DNA from: Paludibacteraceae bacterium
Lineage (GTDB): Bacteria > Bacteroidota > Bacteroidia > Bacteroidales > Paludibacteraceae
Direction: 5' to 3'
NCBI GenBank assembly: GCA_017456885.1
Contig: JAFTIM010000015.1
Span: forward strand, 186,001-250,000
DNA: 64,000 nucleotides
This document shows, piece after piece, positions 3,524 to 52,290 of this stretch. The position numbers and the translations under genes are program-made. Under the pieces are notes generated by a model. It had not been told where the DNA came from and did not search any database. It worked only from the letters and a program-made list of their open reading frames with translations. The stretch's first letter is position 1. Each line of letters starts with the position of its first letter.

Positions 3524-4372
3524 ATGAAAAACACGATGCAAATGCCGATAAACAAGGAACATTCCGTAATGGCAATCATAAACATTACGCCCGACTCCTT
3601 TTACGAGAAAAGCCGCTGTCTTGATGTCAAAAATTTGGAAGAGAGACTCCGTAGTTTAAAGAACTCCCCGTTTGATATTCTCGACATCGGATCGTACTCC
3701 TCGCGTCCGAACGGCAAATACGTTTCAAACGGCAAATACGTTTCAAAAGAGGAAGAACTCAGCCGTTTGCTTCCCGCATTGCAACTAATCAAACAAACAT
3801 TTCCTAAGGCCGTAATCTCCATCGACACCTTTCGTGCCGATGTGGCAGAAGCCTGTATAAAGCAGTTTGACATAGATATAATCAACGACATTTCCGGAGG
3901 AACTTTGGACGAGCGTATGTATGATGTCGTTGCAAAATACCAGAAAGCATACGTACTGATGCACATGAGAGGAACCCCTCAAACCATGTCGCTTGCAGGA
4001 AACACGCAATACGAAAATTTATTGGAAGAAATCACGGATTTTTTCGATAAAAGAATCAAGCAACTTGAGCAGGCAGGTTGTAAAGACATCATTCTTGACC
4101 CCGGATTCGGATTTGCAAAAACGACGGAACAAAATTATACCCTTTTGAAAAATCTGCAATTACTAAAAAAATGGGGTTATCCTTTATTGGTCGGTTTTTC
4201 ACGAAAATCAATGATTTGGGAACCGTTAAACACCACTCCCGAGAGTTCGCTTAACGGAACTACCGTTTTAAACACATTGGCTCTAACTCAAGGAGCAAAC
4301 ATTTTGAGGGTACACGATGTAAACGAAGCCCACGAAGCTATAAAATTGTTTACCACCTACAATCACGCATAA
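3524..4372 (+). CDS. folP: dihydropteroate synthase
   Basis: Condenses p-aminobenzoate with 6-hydroxymethyl-7,8-dihydropterin diphosphate in folate synthesis; it is the sulfonamide target. The 282-residue TIM barrel shows MAIINITPDSFY (loop 1), DILDIGSYSSRP (loop 2), ISIDTFRADVAE, IINDISGGT, LMHMRGTPQTM and ILDPGFGFAKT. Loop 2 is unusual: the RP is followed by NGKYVS twice in tandem, encoded by two identical 18-bp units, where relatives have a short RPG-type loop. Translation probably starts at ATG 3524 rather than the TTG at 3509. cdaA begins 4 bases after the stop, so the two share a transcript. Confidence 0.95.
   Translation: MKNTMQMPINKEHSVMAIINITPDSFYEKSRCLDVKNLEERLRSLKNSPFDILDIGSYSSRPNGKYVSNGKYVSKEEELSRLLPALQLIKQTFPKAVISIDTFRADVAEACIKQFDIDIINDISGGTLDERMYDVVAKYQKAYVLMHMRGTPQTMSLAGNTQYENLLEEITDFFDKRIKQLEQAGCKDIILDPGFGFAKTTEQNYTLLKNLQLLKKWGYPLLVGFSRKSMIWEPLNTTPESSLNGTTVLNTLALTQGANILRVHDVNEAHEAIKLFTTYNHA
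3710..3745 (+). repeat. perfect 18-bp tandem duplication inside folP
   Basis: The unit AACGGCAAATACGTTTCA occurs at 3710-3727 and again at 3728-3745 with no mismatch. It adds six residues (NGKYVS) in frame to the loop that carries the SSRP motif of dihydropteroate synthase. Confidence 0.97.
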
Positions 4373-47055: not shown

Positions 47056-48348
47056 ATGCAAAAACCAATTATAGGGCTTTTAGAAAGCCGTCAGACCTAC
47101 CACACCACGCAGAGCATTGTGCGTTGGAAACACGCTGTAAATGCCTTTGAAAACAGAGAAAACCCGAACCGCGTGTTGCTCTACGACATGTACGAAGACA
47201 TCTTGCTCGACGGACAACTCGAATGCACATGGGGAAAACGGGTCGACTCATTGCTCAACCGAAAGCTTGCGTATATGCGCAACGGCAAAAACGTACCCGA
47301 AATAGACAAGGTACTTGCCTCGCCCGACATTCGTATGATTCTGCGCGAAATAATGAATGCGATAGCTTACGGATACACACTGCTGCAAGTGAACGACATA
47401 AAATACGACACCGACAGCGAATGCTACAAAATCGTGTTCGACCTCGTGCCACGCAAACACGTACACCCCGAAAAGGGATTTGAGTGTGTAAGCCGCGAAC
47501 AACATTCGGCCGACCGCGATTTTTTGTACAAAGAAAAACCGCTTGCCAAATACATGATTTACGCCGGCGAACCCACCGACAAAGGAATTTTTATAAAAGC
47601 TGCTCCTTACGTCATCTACAAACGCGGAGCTTTTGGCGACTGGGCACAGTTCTCCGAAATGTTCGGCATGCCGTTTCGCGAAGCCATTTATGAGGCTTAC
47701 GACGAAAAAACGCGTGAACGCATTCAAAGTTTTATGAAAGAATGGGCTGCACAAGAATACCTCGTGCACGACCGTAACGTGGAGGTGAAAATACATGAAA
47801 CGGGAGGCTCGTCGGCCTCGTCGGACATTTACGACAAATTTATAGCCGTATGCGATGCGGGCATCAGCAAAACCATTCTCGGCAACACACTCACCACCGA
47901 ACAGGGCGACAAAGGGGCGCGTGCCTTGGGCGAAGTGCATCAAAAGGAGCAGAAAAGCAAAGAACAAAGCGACAAAGAGTTTGTGCTTTCGGTGCTGAAT
48001 ACGCAATTTCGGTCGGTGCTCAAAACATTCGGTATCGACGCCTCGGGTGGCTGTTTCTACTTTGAAGAAAACGACGAGGACTGGAACAAAGTGCAAACCA
48101 AATGGAACGTGATAAACTCCGTTGCTGCCCGCGTTCCCGTCGACGACGACTACATATACGAAGCAACAGGCATACCCAAACCGAAAAACTACAACGAGTT
48201 GAAAGAAGAACAGGAACGCCGACGCCGTGAAATGCTCGAGCGTATGCACGATGGAAACGACCCCGACAAGAATGAGGAGAAAACACCATCGACCGCCAAG
48301 AAAAAACTCGCAGCACGCATAGCCGATTTTTTCGGGTTCGCCCCTTAG
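47056..48348 (+). CDS. portal protein (Mu gp29 / DUF935-like)
   Basis: A 430-residue portal subunit. It shows LLYDMYEDILLDGQLECTWGKRVDSLLNRKL, a region that corresponds to the family core, then LVPRKHVHPEKG, GDWAQFSEMFGMPFREAIYEAYDEKTRERI and ILGNTLTTEQGDKGARALGEVH. The C-terminal tail is charged. It forms the dodecameric ring for DNA passage. Confidence 0.88.
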   Translation: MQKPIIGLLESRQTYHTTQSIVRWKHAVNAFENRENPNRVLLYDMYEDILLDGQLECTWGKRVDSLLNRKLAYMRNGKNVPEIDKVLASPDIRMILREIMNAIAYGYTLLQVNDIKYDTDSECYKIVFDLVPRKHVHPEKGFECVSREQHSADRDFLYKEKPLAKYMIYAGEPTDKGIFIKAAPYVIYKRGAFGDWAQFSEMFGMPFREAIYEAYDEKTRERIQSFMKEWAAQEYLVHDRNVEVKIHETGGSSASSDIYDKFIAVCDAGISKTILGNTLTTEQGDKGARALGEVHQKEQKSKEQSDKEFVLSVLNTQFRSVLKTFGIDASGGCFYFEENDEDWNKVQTKWNVINSVAARVPVDDDYIYEATGIPKPKNYNELKEEQERRRREMLERMHDGNDPDKNEEKTPSTAKKKLAARIADFFGFAP

Positions 48349-48401: not shown

Positions 48402-49724
48402 GTGGAAAGCGATGTGAGTTTGAGTGTGGAAGCTATTGCACACGCATTGGTGAACATATACAAGAGGAAAGTGGATATTGACCACGAAGTGGAAGAGAAC
48501 CTATTTCAAGAAACACGCCAAATCTTCAACGAAGCAATTTCAGAAGGTTATGCTAACGCAGCAGAAAAGGATGTGCCTCTGCCCGACGATGCCTTCAGGA
48601 GTTCGTTCAAGCATAGTGCGGATGTGTTCTCGGCTTTCAGGGTGCACCGTATGCAAAAGGACATTGCTGCACAGATGATAGACGATGAGGGGCAAGTGAA
48701 GCCGTTTCAGAAGTTTGTACGCGATGTGTCGCCCTACATTGAGCACCGCAATCGTGCTTGGTTGCGCACCGAATATGACACTGCTATACTCAGAGCTCAG
48801 AACGCTGCCGAGTGGAAAATGTTTGAAGCGGAAAAGGATGTTTATCCCAACCTTGAGTGGATTCAGTCAACCTCTCCTGATCCGGGTGCGGACCACATGA
48901 TTTATTGGGGGACAATACGTCCTGTTGATGATCCTTTTTGGAGTGAGCACAAGCCCGGCGATAGGTGGAACTGCAAGTGTGAGCTCCGACAAACCGACAA
49001 GAACGCTACTGCACTGCCTGTGAGCGACGGCAAGTCGGACCCCATGCGTGGCTTAGAGAGTAACCCTGCCAAAGCGGAAGAACTGTTCTCCGACCACCAC
49101 CCATACTACCCAAGCAATTGTGCGAGTTGTCCGTTTGCTGGCAGTAAGCTTATGGCTCTTGCTCGAAGTTTGAGAAGACGAAAAAACTGTAATGCGTGCA
49201 AGAGAGTAAATAAAGAGATAGACCGCCAACGCATTATAGCCAACCGCAAGGAGTACGAACGCTTGAAGAAAGACCCCAACTACTTTGATGTAGAATTTAA
49301 TGAAAAAACAGGAGGCGTTAAAGCCACCCATATAGGCCATAATCTCGATAAGGTTGGAGGTAAATACGAACTTGATACTTTAATTGCCGGTGTTAAGGCT
49401 GGCAATATTGTCGTTCTCGAAAATGAAAAAGGAGAAGGAAAGCATACTGAAGGTCTTTGGAATGGAAAGCCGTTTGAAGTTGCAGGTTGTCAAACAGGTA
49501 CTGCAAATAATATCGTGCGTGGGCTTAAACACTGTGCGTCAAAACGAAAAACTGAATTTGCAGTTATTGTATTGCCAAACACTGATTTTGATAAGGTCGT
49601 TTTTGAAACTGCAATAAAGCGTTTTAAAGGTCTTGAAAAATTAAATGACGGGCAATACCTTAAATTCAAAAAAATTATCTGTGTACATAACCAAGAAGTG
49701 GTTTATATCACAGATGGTATATAA
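48402..49724 (+). CDS. F-like minor head protein with an extra C-terminal domain
   Basis: A 440-residue protein. Residues 1-300 match the Mu gpF head-morphogenesis fold: FQKFVRDVSPYIEHRNRAWLRTEYDTAILRAQNAAEW, ADHMIYWGTIRPVDDPFWSEHKPGDRWNCKCELRQTD, and a cysteine cluster NCASCPF...NCNACKR. Residues 300-440 form a further domain (ATHIGHNLDKVGGKYELDTLI, KPFEVAGCQTGTANNIVRGLKH, EFAVIVLPNTDF) that looks like a small nuclease or toxin of the BECR/CdiA-CT type often fused to F-like proteins. A GTG start at 48402 is used; the frame is open 50 bases further upstream, so the true start may be earlier. Codon use in the last third is more A+T-rich. Confidence 0.78.
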   Translation: MESDVSLSVEAIAHALVNIYKRKVDIDHEVEENLFQETRQIFNEAISEGYANAAEKDVPLPDDAFRSSFKHSADVFSAFRVHRMQKDIAAQMIDDEGQVKPFQKFVRDVSPYIEHRNRAWLRTEYDTAILRAQNAAEWKMFEAEKDVYPNLEWIQSTSPDPGADHMIYWGTIRPVDDPFWSEHKPGDRWNCKCELRQTDKNATALPVSDGKSDPMRGLESNPAKAEELFSDHHPYYPSNCASCPFAGSKLMALARSLRRRKNCNACKRVNKEIDRQRIIANRKEYERLKKDPNYFDVEFNEKTGGVKATHIGHNLDKVGGKYELDTLIAGVKAGNIVVLENEKGEGKHTEGLWNGKPFEVAGCQTGTANNIVRGLKHCASKRKTEFAVIVLPNTDFDKVVFETAIKRFKGLEKLNDGQYLKFKKIICVHNQEVVYITDGI

Positions 49725-49734
49725 AAAGGAACGG

Positions 49735-49764
49735 AAGGCATACTCGTAGTAACTTCCTCCCGCA
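49735..49764 (-). ncRNA. candidate small RNA 4 (weakest of the array)
   Basis: A TATATTTG box at 49768-49775 (minus) is followed at once by GGAAG...CTTCC and GTTCCTTTTT. This gives a transcript of about 30-40 bases reading toward the 3' end of the F-like gene. The hairpin is weak. Confidence 0.35.
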
Positions 49765-49816
49765 CTGCAAATATACAAAAATTTATTTTGATAATACGAT
49801 TTTGAATAAAAAAAAA

Positions 49817-49828
49817 CCGCCGAAGCGG
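49817..49828 (-). terminator. UUCG-type hairpin inside the RNA array
   Basis: On the minus strand CCGC-TTCG-GCGG is followed by nine T (49808-49816). It acts as a backup terminator after candidate RNA 3; no separate promoter was seen for it. Confidence 0.6.
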
Positions 49829-49873
49829 GCTGTTAATCCACAAGGGGAATGGAGAATTTGAGGTGCATGAAAT

Positions 49874-49997
49874 AAAAAAACCCGAATAGCAAAATATTCG
49901 GGAAAAACTAGCGGCGATTTTACTCGTCGCAGCGTTTTTTAGGGTTGCGGCTTAAAATACGAATTGCCCGCAAAGCAGGATTCCTATCCTCACCACG
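49874..49997 (-). ncRNA. candidate small RNA 3 of tandem array
   Basis: The -7 box TACCTTTG (50001-50008, minus) gives a start near 49997. The transcript ends at CCCGAATA-TTTTGC-TATTCGGG (49881-49902) followed by seven T. It is about 124 bases and contains a second hairpin, GCGA...TCGC, near 49910-49930. There is no good start codon with a conserved frame. The 615-base gap 49725-50339 is filled by this array. Confidence 0.6.
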
Positions 49998-50051
49998 TTG
50001 CAAAGGTACATTTTTTTTGGATATGATACTAAAATAGTAATGATTTTGAAT

Positions 50052-50156
50052 AAAAAAAGGGGCAAAAGCCCCTTGTCTTACTTCAAAGGCGAGGTTCTCT
50101 ACGAGAGACAACTCCACCTGCTGTTTATAATGTCGCCACTATGAACTCGTAAGACA
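50052..50156 (-). ncRNA. candidate small RNA 2 of tandem array
   Basis: The -7 box TATCTTTG (50160-50167, minus) gives a start near 50156. The 5' end TTGTCTTAC (50157-50149) pairs perfectly with GTAAGACAA (50081-50073), which abuts the terminator GGGGC-TTTT-GCCCC plus seven T. The result is a closed RNA of about 105 bases with an inner hairpin TCTCTCGTAGAGA, the best-formed unit of the array. Confidence 0.65.
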
Positions 50157-50191
50157 ATGCAAAGATACACATTTATTTGAGATAAGTGAAA

Positions 50192-50262
50192 TAAAAAATC
50201 CCGAATAGCGAACTATTCGGGCAAAAGTAAATGAGGGTCATGCCCCCACAACCTTTTTCTTT
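50192..50262 (-). ncRNA. candidate small RNA 1 of tandem array
   Basis: The -7 box TATCTTTG (50266-50273, minus) gives a start near 50262. The terminator is CCCGAATAG-TTCG-CTATTCGGG (50200-50221) with a UUCG tetraloop and a T run. Length is about 70 bases. It contains GGGGGCATGACCC, so a 22-codon frame from that ATG is possible, but it runs through the terminator. Confidence 0.6.
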
Positions 50263-50339
50263 CTGCAAAGATACGAAAAATAAATGAACTATGAAAACAC
50301 TACTACTGCTCATTTTCAATTATCCATTATCAACTAACA

Positions 50340-50789
50340 ATGACACCCGAACAATTTAAAAATCTGCTTAAAACAAAGCAAAATGAGTTAAAACAGGCGT
50401 ATGCACGCACCTTGCCTATTAAGGTAGGAACTGAGGCTGTTAACTTCTTTCGTGATAACATTCGCAAAGAGGGTTTTGTCGATTCAAAGCTGGAGAAATG
50501 GAAACCTGCCAAACGAAAGTCCAACCCACGCCATCCCGATAGAGCATACGGCACGTTGCTCTCCCGACGCAGTGTTCTATACCGTTCAATCAACAAACGC
50601 ACCTCTCCGGGCAAGGTTACCATCTACAGCGATGTGCCTTATGCTGCCGTGCACAACGAGGGACTGCGTGCCGGTCGTGGCAAGGGCTTTACGATGCCTC
50701 GTCGGCAGTTCATCGGCGAGAGTCGCGAGCTTACACAAAAGATACGCGAAACGATAGAGAACGAAATCGGCAGAATACTGAAAGGGTAA
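50340..50789 (+). CDS. virion morphogenesis protein (Mu gpG-like)
   Basis: A 149-residue protein of the gpG family involved in tail/head completion. MTPEQFKNLLKTKQNEL, AVNFFRDNIRKEGF, SKLEKWKPAKRK, YGTLLSRRSVLYRSINKR and YAAVHNEGLRAGRGKGFTMPRRQFIGESRELTQKI are all conserved positions. It is the last gene of the plus-strand packaging operon, separated from the F-like gene by the RNA array. Confidence 0.88.
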   Translation: MTPEQFKNLLKTKQNELKQAYARTLPIKVGTEAVNFFRDNIRKEGFVDSKLEKWKPAKRKSNPRHPDRAYGTLLSRRSVLYRSINKRTSPGKVTIYSDVPYAAVHNEGLRAGRGKGFTMPRRQFIGESRELTQKIRETIENEIGRILKG

Positions 50790-50899: not shown

Positions 50900-50919
50900 A
50901 TTTCACCAAAAAACAACCC

Positions 50920-50949
50920 CGCCCCGAAGCGTTCGCTCCGGGGCGGTGG
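50920..50949. repeat. 30-bp palindromic repeat, copy 1
   Basis: CGCCCCGAAGCG-TT-CGCTCCGGGGCG plus GTGG, a near-perfect 12-bp stem. An identical 30-bp copy is at 51738-51767. Both are preceded by AACAACCC. Confidence 0.9.
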
Positions 50950-50967: not shown

Positions 50968-51624
50968 TTATTCGACACTTATTTCGGGATGGTTCTGCAA
51001 ATACATGTCGCGCAGTGGAATGCTCAATACGAAACAAACATCCCCGATTGTTACAGCATAATCTTTTTCTTCGCCGTTTATTGTCAGTGTACGCATAGGA
51101 CTATTGTACACCCAATTTTTCATTCGATTAAAAATGTCGTTTTGCAGATTTTCGAACAACACTTCGCTTGCCGTTGTTTCTACGTCAAGGGCTGTTTTAG
51201 GCAATTTTTGTTCGATTTCGTTCAGCAAGAACTCTTTGTTGGCTTCCAAAAATTCCTTGCCACTGATATCTTCAAACAATCGTTCGCCCGCATCGTTTAA
51301 CTTGCGCGGACTTTTCTTGACTGAAAAGGCAGTTGCTGCACTTGGATTTTTTATCATCAAAAAAGTCTTTATCTGAACAATATCTTCGGATATTTGCTTA
51401 AACAAATCAGAATGTTTGTCGCAAGGTATCGCGTCCATCTTTGATTTGATAGGTTCTAATTTTTTTATGGTGCTTTCGTGGTCTTTACACGGTAGGTTGC
51501 ATACTTTTTCTTCCATTCTGCCAATACTCTTGCTCTGATTGACAAGAATTGCAATAATGCTTATAACACCACCCAAAGACACTAAAGCAGTAATAGACGC
51601 AATAACAATTTCGACGATAGTCAT
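50968..51624 (-). CDS. membrane-anchored protein of unknown function; moron cassette
   Basis: A 218-residue protein with one N-terminal membrane helix (TIVEIVIASITALVSLGGVISIIAILV), a helical/coiled-coil middle with two CDKH/CKDH pairs (about residues 45-80), and a soluble C-terminal domain ending MRTLTINGEEKDYAVTIGDVCFVLSIPLRDMYL. It is more A+T-rich than its neighbours. It has its own promoter box and is bracketed by two identical palindromes, which marks it as an acquired cassette. No family recognised; a role in phage exclusion is a guess. Confidence 0.65.
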   Translation of the reverse strand: MTIVEIVIASITALVSLGGVISIIAILVNQSKSIGRMEEKVCNLPCKDHESTIKKLEPIKSKMDAIPCDKHSDLFKQISEDIVQIKTFLMIKNPSAATAFSVKKSPRKLNDAGERLFEDISGKEFLEANKEFLLNEIEQKLPKTALDVETTASEVLFENLQNDIFNRMKNWVYNSPMRTLTINGEEKDYAVTIGDVCFVLSIPLRDMYLQNHPEISVE

Positions 51625-51652
51625 ACCTATCAATATTAAAAATTTTGGTTGT

Positions 51653-51660: not shown

Positions 51661-51737
51661 AATACATTATTTTCATTTGTGTAACTTTTTGACAAAGTTT
51701 AGTTATTAAACGGTGTTAAACCGCTAAACAAACAACC

Positions 51738-51767
51738 CGCCCCGAAGCGTTCGCTCCGGGGCGGTGG
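51738..51767. repeat. 30-bp palindromic repeat, copy 2
   Basis: Identical to 50920-50949 in the same orientation. It can act as a terminator-like hairpin on either strand. Confidence 0.9.
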
Positions 51768-51792: not shown

Positions 51793-52290
51793 TTATTGGT
51801 TGATGTACAAGGAAATGCCTTCGACTACTTTGTTGTGAGGCACTGCCGAGGTGTCGCGTAAGAGGCATGTATATTCCTCTACGCTATCGACGTAGCGCTC
51901 GTGGTCGTGATTGGTGATGGAGGCGGTACGCATCCACGAATTCATATAGTCGGTACGAAATGCTTGCATGCGTGCAACGACAAGGTCGGAGAGGTCGAGA
52001 AAGTCCAACGCCCTGCTTTCGATGGGCGAAAGATGATCGGTGCCGGAGAACCATTCGGTTACGATGTGCAACCGTATAATCGGATTGCACTCCTGCGTAC
52101 GCTGTCCGATGGTACGCCATTGCATGGTGTCGAACTCGACAAAGAGTGCCGGCGTGGCAAAAGGCGTTTCCTGTTCGAGGAAATCGACCTGACGGTTCCA
52201 AAGGTCGAAATGCGCAAAAAGCGGTTTGTTGTCGGCTGTCAGAACAGTCATCAAATGCTCTTTAATGTCTAAATAAAGTTGTTTTCTCAT
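51793..52290 (-). CDS. phage protein of unknown function, possible tail-completion protein
   Basis: A 165-residue protein on the minus strand, last of the early/middle operon. MRKQLYLDIKEHLMTVLTADN...FDLWNRQVDFLEQETPFATPALFVEF and the later IIRLHIVTEWFSG...ALDFLDLSD are of a form seen in tail terminator/completion proteins (Mu gp37 role), but the position among middle genes is unusual. The assignment is tentative. Confidence 0.55.
   Translation of the reverse strand: MRKQLYLDIKEHLMTVLTADNKPLFAHFDLWNRQVDFLEQETPFATPALFVEFDTMQWRTIGQRTQECNPIIRLHIVTEWFSGTDHLSPIESRALDFLDLSDLVVARMQAFRTDYMNSWMRTASITNHDHERYVDSVEEYTCLLRDTSAVPHNKVVEGISLYINQ

What the first reader, a model, noticed from the sequence alone, without database searches (positions are those of the whole stretch)
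49735..50273. Tandem array of promoter-terminator units, candidate small-RNA genes, inside the prophage
On the minus strand, within 540 bases between the F-like and G-like genes, there are at least three and probably four units in a row, each with a TAnnTTTG box (50266-50273, 50160-50167, 50001-50008, 49768-49775) then 30-124 bases then a hairpin with a T run. Two terminators share the CCCGAATA stem; one unit has a perfect closing stem. No coding frame is conserved among units. A series of short antisense-oriented transcripts in the middle of the head operon is not part of the Mu plan. Possible roles: base-pairing regulators of host or phage mRNAs, decoys, or toxin-antitoxin RNAs guarding the adjacent toxin-like F domain.
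Basis: partly seen in the sequence, partly recalled or inferred. Interest (0 to 1): 0.8.

Follow-up and report, generated by a model that had tools for sequence, protein, structure and literature searches.

The report
RNA immunity array for phage toxins
Next to a toxin built into a gut-type phage's head protein sits a row of small structured RNA genes; comparison across about a hundred related phages suggests that such RNAs, one per toxin type, are the toxins' antidotes, where only protein antidotes had been described.

Summary
On the minus strand of the F-G gap (49724-50273) lie four complete promoter-RNA-terminator units (A-D) and a truncated fifth (A'). The F protein is a MuF polymorphic toxin; its C-terminal domain is predicted to be a CdiA-CT-like tRNA nuclease.

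The units are not peculiar to this phage. Of 57 Bacteroidales MuF proteins with nuclease-like or unassigned C-termini, 54 have one such unit converging on the toxin stop codon (4.8 expected by chance). MuF proteins without a toxin lack it. Those with glutamine-deamidase, acetyltransferase or peptidase-like toxins mostly have a small protein gene in the same slot and strand. The RNA fold covaries strongly, is exchanged together with the toxin, and persists without an intact toxin at several loci. No Rfam family matches.

Best explanation: each unit encodes a cognate RNA antitoxin/immunity factor for the adjacent nuclease toxin. Unit A belongs to the present F toxin; the others are probably retained from earlier cassettes, like orphan immunity genes at CDI loci. 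Binding and expression are untested, and cognate toxins for units B-D were not identified. It works like a type III toxin-antitoxin but fails that family's anatomical tests.

The parts
48402..49724 (+). F: MuF head protein with C-terminal toxin domain (toxin part about 49239-49721)
   Evidence: Pfam Phage_Mu_F; toxin domain modelled at pLDDT 92.9 and matched to CdiA-CT 1026b (4g6v, E 3.9e-4)
49768..49775 (-). Unit A promoter box TATATTTG
   Evidence: Bacteroidota-type -7 box; conserved position in homologous loci
49722..49764 (-). Unit A RNA, about 40 nt, cognate of the present F toxin; closing helix, then T run over the F stop codon
   Evidence: Covariance model R1 hit 49728-49775, E 2.8e-9; helix covaries across 21 loci
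49808..49851 (-). Unit A': 3' half of an RNA unit with terminator; promoter and 5' half lost
   Evidence: Intact relative beside a CdiA_C-like toxin in G001 (L038/L050) and without a toxin in G003 (L039)
49874..49997 (-). Unit B RNA, about 125 nt
   Evidence: Fold z -2.9; ortholog in G001 (L050:9349-9420 minus) with two double-compensated pairs
50001..50008 (-). Unit B promoter box TACCTTTG
50052..50157 (-). Unit C RNA, about 105 nt, 9-bp closing stem then separate terminator hairpin
   Evidence: Fold z -4.05; same layout as RNAs of CdiA_C-type loci such as L148
50160..50167 (-). Unit C promoter box TATCTTTG
50193..50262 (-). Unit D RNA, about 70 nt
   Evidence: Fold z -3.8
50266..50273 (-). 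Unit D promoter box TATCTTTG
   Evidence: 45 nt around it (50263-50307) identical to the unit promoter of another MuF locus in the same genome, L002
49856..49910 (-). Copy 1 of a 55-nt terminator repeat (84% identical to 50175-50229)
50291..50359 (+). Remnant ORF MKTLLLLIF..., the start of a gene that is 106 aa long at the same place in L002
50340..50789 (+). G: tail completion/virion morphogenesis protein, the next head-operon gene
   Evidence: Pfam Phage_tail_S

Best explanation
The array is a set of RNA immunity (antitoxin) genes for MuF polymorphic toxins. The phage builds a nuclease domain into its head protein F, to be delivered with phage DNA. Each nuclease-type toxin cassette carries, just past its stop codon and on the opposite strand, its own promoter and a small structured RNA (mostly 40-140 nt) whose terminator meets the toxin's stop codon. 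In a lysogen the RNA would be made independently of the head operon and would bind and block the cognate nuclease, protecting the cell from its own F or from F injected by a related phage. Toxin and RNA move together as one cassette. When the toxin is replaced or lost the old RNA can stay: in this phage unit A guards the present F toxin, while D, C, B and the decayed A' are retained RNAs against other toxins. SHOWN by sequence: dedicated units, fixed position and strand, covarying structure, link to toxin class, joint exchange, orphans. INFERRED: transcription, RNA-toxin binding, protection, and that units B, C and D have cognate toxins.
For: (1) 54 of 57 MuF genes with nuclease-like or unassigned C-termini have one such unit against 4.8 expected, and 2 on the plus strand; 23 of 23 viral loci found with the window's toxin, 22 of 22 of a second toxin class, and 14 more loci in the order-wide set, one of them with a 205-nt RNA. 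(2) MuF without a toxin part lack it (2 of 15 chance boxes, 0.8 expected). (3) MuF with Gln_amidase, GNAT-like or zincin-like C-termini have instead a 58-99 aa gene in the same slot and strand; by individual Pfam assignment 18 of 18 CdiA_C/PBECR/LPD3 have the RNA, 0 of 6 other enzyme types. (4) The closing helix covaries: 97.9% paired, 21 double changes against 5.0 expected, 0 of 500 shuffles; G-U pairs are frequent, which points to the minus-strand transcript. 55 units have mean fold z -3.5. (5) Toxin and RNA are exchanged together between near-identical F fronts and promoters (L095/L099) and are shared on different F backbones (L003/L157). (6) RNAs of this class stand without an intact toxin in G002, G006, G276, G293 and G339. 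(7) Orphan toxin-RNA modules in the same genome (L003) and in G108. (8) F toxin model matches the CdiA-CT 1026b toxin. (9) In 28 loci gene G follows the RNA directly, leaving no room for an immunity gene.
Against: No expression data and no binding or toxicity test. LPD3-type toxins and the second modelled class have no proven nuclease fold. Cognate toxins for units C and D were not found and B's is uncertain. A' is truncated, so at least one unit is dead. If the head operon is read through, its mRNA is complementary to the RNA, so an antisense role is not excluded. Two short MuF extensions (L019, L153) lack a unit. A protein immunity gene elsewhere in the phage was not excluded.
Confidence: 0.68

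Rival explanations
1. Cis-antisense regulators: the RNAs pair with the F-G stretch of the head-operon mRNA and keep the toxin or head genes silent in the lysogen; toxin neutralisation is not involved.
For: The RNA is transcribed from the opposite strand of the F-G gap, so read-through head mRNA is fully complementary to it; terminators overlap the toxin stop codon.
Against: Overlap with the toxin reading frame is about 0-40 nt. It does not explain why the unit depends on the toxin's enzyme type and is replaced by a protein gene in the same slot, nor RNAs kept without an F gene nearby, nor a covarying fold shared by RNAs of related toxins.
Confidence: 0.15
2. Terminator or insulation elements: the units only end transcription at the end of toxin cassettes and keep head and opposite-strand transcription apart.
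For: Every unit ends in a terminator at the toxin stop codon.
Against: A terminator needs no promoter 40-140 nt upstream, no conserved core and no covarying closing helix; MuF genes without a toxin have no such unit.
Confidence: 0.06
3. Unit A is a real antitoxin RNA, but A', B, C and D in this window are relics left by cassette exchange, without present function.
For: A' is truncated; recombination-prone 55-nt repeat; cognate toxins for B, C and D not found.
Against: B, C and D keep promoter box, fold and terminator; B has an ortholog with compensatory changes in a sister species.
Confidence: 0.3

Closest known systems
MuF polymorphic toxins of temperate phages (PMC5576092; Bxa/Bsi/BAH in Bacteroides, PMC11699363)
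   Same: MuF domain after the portal gene, exchangeable C-terminal toxin, temperate Bacteroidales phages.
   Different: Described immunity factors are small proteins; here a structured RNA on the opposite strand takes the place, for nuclease-type toxins.
Type III toxin-antitoxin systems (ToxIN, AbiQ, CptIN; AbiF-RCd22)
   Same: A nuclease-type protein toxin paired with a structured non-coding RNA.
   Different: Type III RNA lies upstream, co-transcribed with the toxin, as tandem repeats, and the toxin is ToxN-like (PMC12373285, PMC8860590). Here it lies downstream, convergent, with its own promoter, non-repeated; the toxin is CdiA-CT-like or PBECR.
CDI orphan toxin/immunity modules (PMC9086364)
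   Same: Displaced toxin-immunity modules and orphan immunity genes accumulate downstream of the active toxin.
   Different: Here the retained immunity is RNA, and the carrier is a phage head protein rather than CdiA.
Type I toxin-antitoxin systems with convergent antisense RNA
   Same: Convergent RNA meeting the toxin gene's 3' end; found in prophages.
   Different: Type I toxins are small hydrophobic peptides with longer antisense overlap (own knowledge); here the toxin is a large nuclease-like virion protein and the overlap is small.

Membership tests
MuF polymorphic toxin | MuF domain | tested here: met
   PF04233, E 8e-10
MuF polymorphic toxin | Gene directly downstream of the portal gene | tested here: met
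   Portal 47056-48348, F 48402-49724
MuF polymorphic toxin | Variable C-terminal toxin domain | tested here: met
   CdiA-CT-like model; C-termini swapped between near-identical fronts
MuF polymorphic toxin | Small downstream ORF as presumed immunity protein | tested here: not met
   The window gap holds only the 22-residue MKTLL remnant; in 28 nuclease-type loci G follows the RNA directly. This feature was reported for most, not all, MuF toxins
Type III toxin-antitoxin | RNA antitoxin neutralises the toxin by direct binding | not testable with these tools
   Needs biochemistry
Type III toxin-antitoxin | RNA upstream of, and co-transcribed with, the toxin gene | tested here: not met
   RNA is downstream and convergent with its own promoter
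Type III toxin-antitoxin | RNA made of tandem repeats | tested here: not met
   No tandem repeats
Type III toxin-antitoxin | ToxN/AbiQ-type toxin | tested here: not met
   Only significant PDB match is CdiA-CT 1026b
Type I toxin-antitoxin | Small hydrophobic toxin peptide | tested here: not met
   440-aa head protein
Type I toxin-antitoxin | RNA acts by base pairing with the toxin mRNA | tested here: inconclusive
   Little overlap with the reading frame, but full complementarity to a possible read-through F-G mRNA
Any Rfam 15 family | Match at the curated gathering score | tested here: not met
   0 matches in the window and in 20 toxin loci; only weak sub-threshold matches

The most novel reading that the evidence does not exclude
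A whole class of polymorphic toxins, nuclease-type MuF toxins of Bacteroidota phages, uses RNA instead of protein as its exchangeable, toxin-specific immunity factor, and some phages and chromosomes keep arrays of orphan immunity RNAs as a record of, and protection against, toxins met before.
Probability: 0.6. Interest if true: 0.93.

Novelty: new variant of a known kind. Interest (0 to 1): 0.86.

Why it matters
Immunity to polymorphic toxins is known as proteins. If the reading is right, a large and diverse group of phage-carried nuclease toxins is controlled by small RNAs that gene annotation does not see, which would explain MuF toxins with no apparent immunity gene. It would join polymorphic toxins with RNA-based toxin-antitoxin biology, supply many natural RNA inhibitors of nucleases, and explain tandem small-RNA arrays in prophages as orphan immunities. 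Each step can be tested in a laboratory E. coli strain with one toxin domain and one short RNA.

Tried and rejected
Rfam (gathering and permissive): nothing above threshold. Reading the units as coding: in the window's RNA class core lengths fall in all three phases and stops occur in every frame in part of the RNAs. One mobile repeat copied in tandem: rejected, no tandem repeats; only terminators are shared. Exact-pattern scans of viral contigs for units B and D gave nothing, and for C two very large contigs sharing only 18-22 nt. Search for viral relatives of the LPD3-type toxins failed, so that class was not modelled; the model of the second toxin class has no significant PDB match. A first idea that all these toxins are BECR-fold was corrected: the window's toxin resembles CdiA-CT 1026b. 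Literature (open-licence PMC only; no subscription journals or bioRxiv): no report of RNA immunity for MuF toxins; no expression data found.

Full report
WHAT IS THERE. The F-G gap of this Mu-like prophage carries on its minus strand units A (next to F), A' (truncated), B, C and D (next to G). The four boxes are exactly as reported, terminators are in place, and A, B, C and D fold better than shuffles (z -2.5, -2.9, -4.05, -3.8). They are different sequences, not a tandem repeat; only a 55-nt terminator stretch is shared by B and D.

WHAT F IS. F is a MuF head protein directly after a Mu-type portal gene. Its C-terminal 161 residues were modelled at pLDDT 92.9 from an alignment of 18 homologues. 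The single significant PDB match is the CdiA-CT toxin of B. pseudomallei 1026b (4g6v, E 3.9e-4, TM 0.50), listed among the PD-(D/E)XK family CdiA-CT toxins in PMC9086364; that it cleaves tRNA is from own knowledge. MuF proteins with toxin C-termini are a known family of phage-borne polymorphic toxins with presumed or shown protein immunity (PMC5576092; PMC11699363).

THE KEY COMPARISON. I collected MuF genes from 358 genomes of the host's family, 393 of its order, IMG/VR and named phages. Directly after the toxin stop codon, on the opposite strand, there is one unit of the window's kind: a TAnnTTTG box (with TTG about 20 nt upstream in 41 of 55), mostly 40-140 nt, then a terminator that often overlaps the toxin stop codon. 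It is present in 54 of 57 MuF genes with nuclease-like or unassigned C-termini; shuffles predict 4.8 and the plus strand shows 2. Of 15 MuF with little or no C-terminal extension 2 have a box (0.8 expected). Some of these entries are close relatives of each other. In the order-wide set 13 further loci have the unit within 150 nt and one (L202) at 205 nt. All 23 viral loci found with the window's toxin type, and 22 of 22 found with a second type, have it. It also occurs in Elizabethkingia phage TCUEAP3 (L212) and, about 230 nt long, in Porphyromonas gingivalis phages (L213, L214, L219).

THE SLOT IS AN IMMUNITY SLOT. MuF proteins whose C-terminus is a glutamine deamidase (Pfam Gln_amidase) have no such RNA. 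They have, in the same place and on the same strand, a 74-99 aa gene, as in Bacteroides phage p00; similar small ORFs accompany an acetyltransferase-like and a zincin-like C-terminus. Counting only C-termini individually assigned by Pfam, 18 of 18 with CdiA_C, PBECR2/3 or LPD3 hits (some of them weak) have the RNA and 0 of 6 with other enzyme families do. The wider count (68 of 71 against 0 of 16, p 8e-15) puts unassigned C-termini with the nucleases partly because they carry an RNA, so it is partly circular.

THE RNA IS UNDER SELECTION AS RNA. For the window's RNA class the closing helix pairs in 97.9% of cells over 21 sequences, with 21 cells changed on both sides (5.0 expected, 0 of 500 shuffles) and at most 4 when the helix is slid. 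Many pairs are G-U, which would be A-C mismatches on the plus strand. 55 units average z -3.5, 18 of the second class -4.6. Unit B has an ortholog in a sister species with two double-compensated pairs.

TOXIN AND RNA ARE ONE CASSETTE. L095 and L099 share 95% of F and 97% of the promoter but not the toxin (47%) or RNA (37%; random pairs 37% and 31%); L009 and L011 likewise. Conversely L003 and L157 share toxin (92%) and RNA (96%) on different F backbones (59%). In the window's own genome L003 carries F-toxin1-RNA1 followed by an orphan toxin2-RNA2, and G108 has tandem modules.

ORPHANS AND THE ARRAY. A covariance model of the window's RNA class found, besides loci with intact toxins, RNAs with no toxin or only a toxin remnant in G002, G006, G276, G293 and G339, and a weaker one in G352. 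In G002 the RNA core is identical to the window's while the promoter region has diverged but keeps its box. Unit A' occurs intact beside a CdiA_C-like toxin in G001, with unit B's ortholog in the same locus, and without a toxin in G003. A' and B were thus probably together in an ancestor whose toxin has since been replaced, which is what an array of retained immunities would look like; compare orphan CDI immunities (PMC9086364).

MECHANISM AND LIMITS. The most economical mechanism is RNA binding to the nuclease, as in type III toxin-antitoxins, but the anatomy differs from type III (downstream, convergent, own promoter, no repeats, other toxin folds; PMC12373285, PMC8860590), so I do not file it there. 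Expression, binding, toxicity and cognate toxins for B, C and D are not shown. Cis-antisense action on a read-through F-G mRNA is the main rival. Literature was searched only in open-licence PMC.

Noticed in passing
L003/L054 (G000:C8) and L002/L053 (G000:C13): Two further MuF loci in the same genome, each with its own RNA unit; L003 has an orphan second toxin module fused to an MKTLL start, and L002 lies beside a tRNA-Gly, as does the toxin/A'/B locus of sister species G001.
   Followed up: partly
L002 (reverse complement 1529-1849) and window 50291-50359: A plus-strand gene starting MKTLL lies between the RNA unit and G: 106 aa in L002, a 22-residue remnant in the window; possibly an additional immunity or accessory protein.
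   Followed up: partly
L094 and L096: Nearly identical F and first part of the toxin, then different toxin halves and different RNA subtypes: a natural swap inside the toxin domain that takes the RNA along.
   Followed up: partly
window 50919-50946 and 51737-51764: Two identical 28-nt terminator hairpins on the minus strand, at the ends of two opposite-strand genes downstream of G (50968-51633 and 51793-52290), neither with a Pfam match.
   Followed up: no
L004 21037-21336, L116, L122, L204 (minus strand after F): A family of 74-99 aa proteins (motif IPxxI) paired with glutamine-deamidase MuF toxins, no Pfam match; probable immunity proteins.
   Followed up: partly
L213, L214, L219 (Porphyromonas gingivalis phages): The unit there is about 230 nt long and a 52-aa ORF annotated over it (4116-4274) may be spurious.
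   Followed up: partly
L151 (G108:C13): Tandem toxin modules, each with its own convergent RNA unit, in one locus.
   Followed up: partly
L197, L198: MuF C-terminus with a weak zincin-metallopeptidase Pfam match and a 78-aa opposite-strand ORF in the immunity slot.
   Followed up: no
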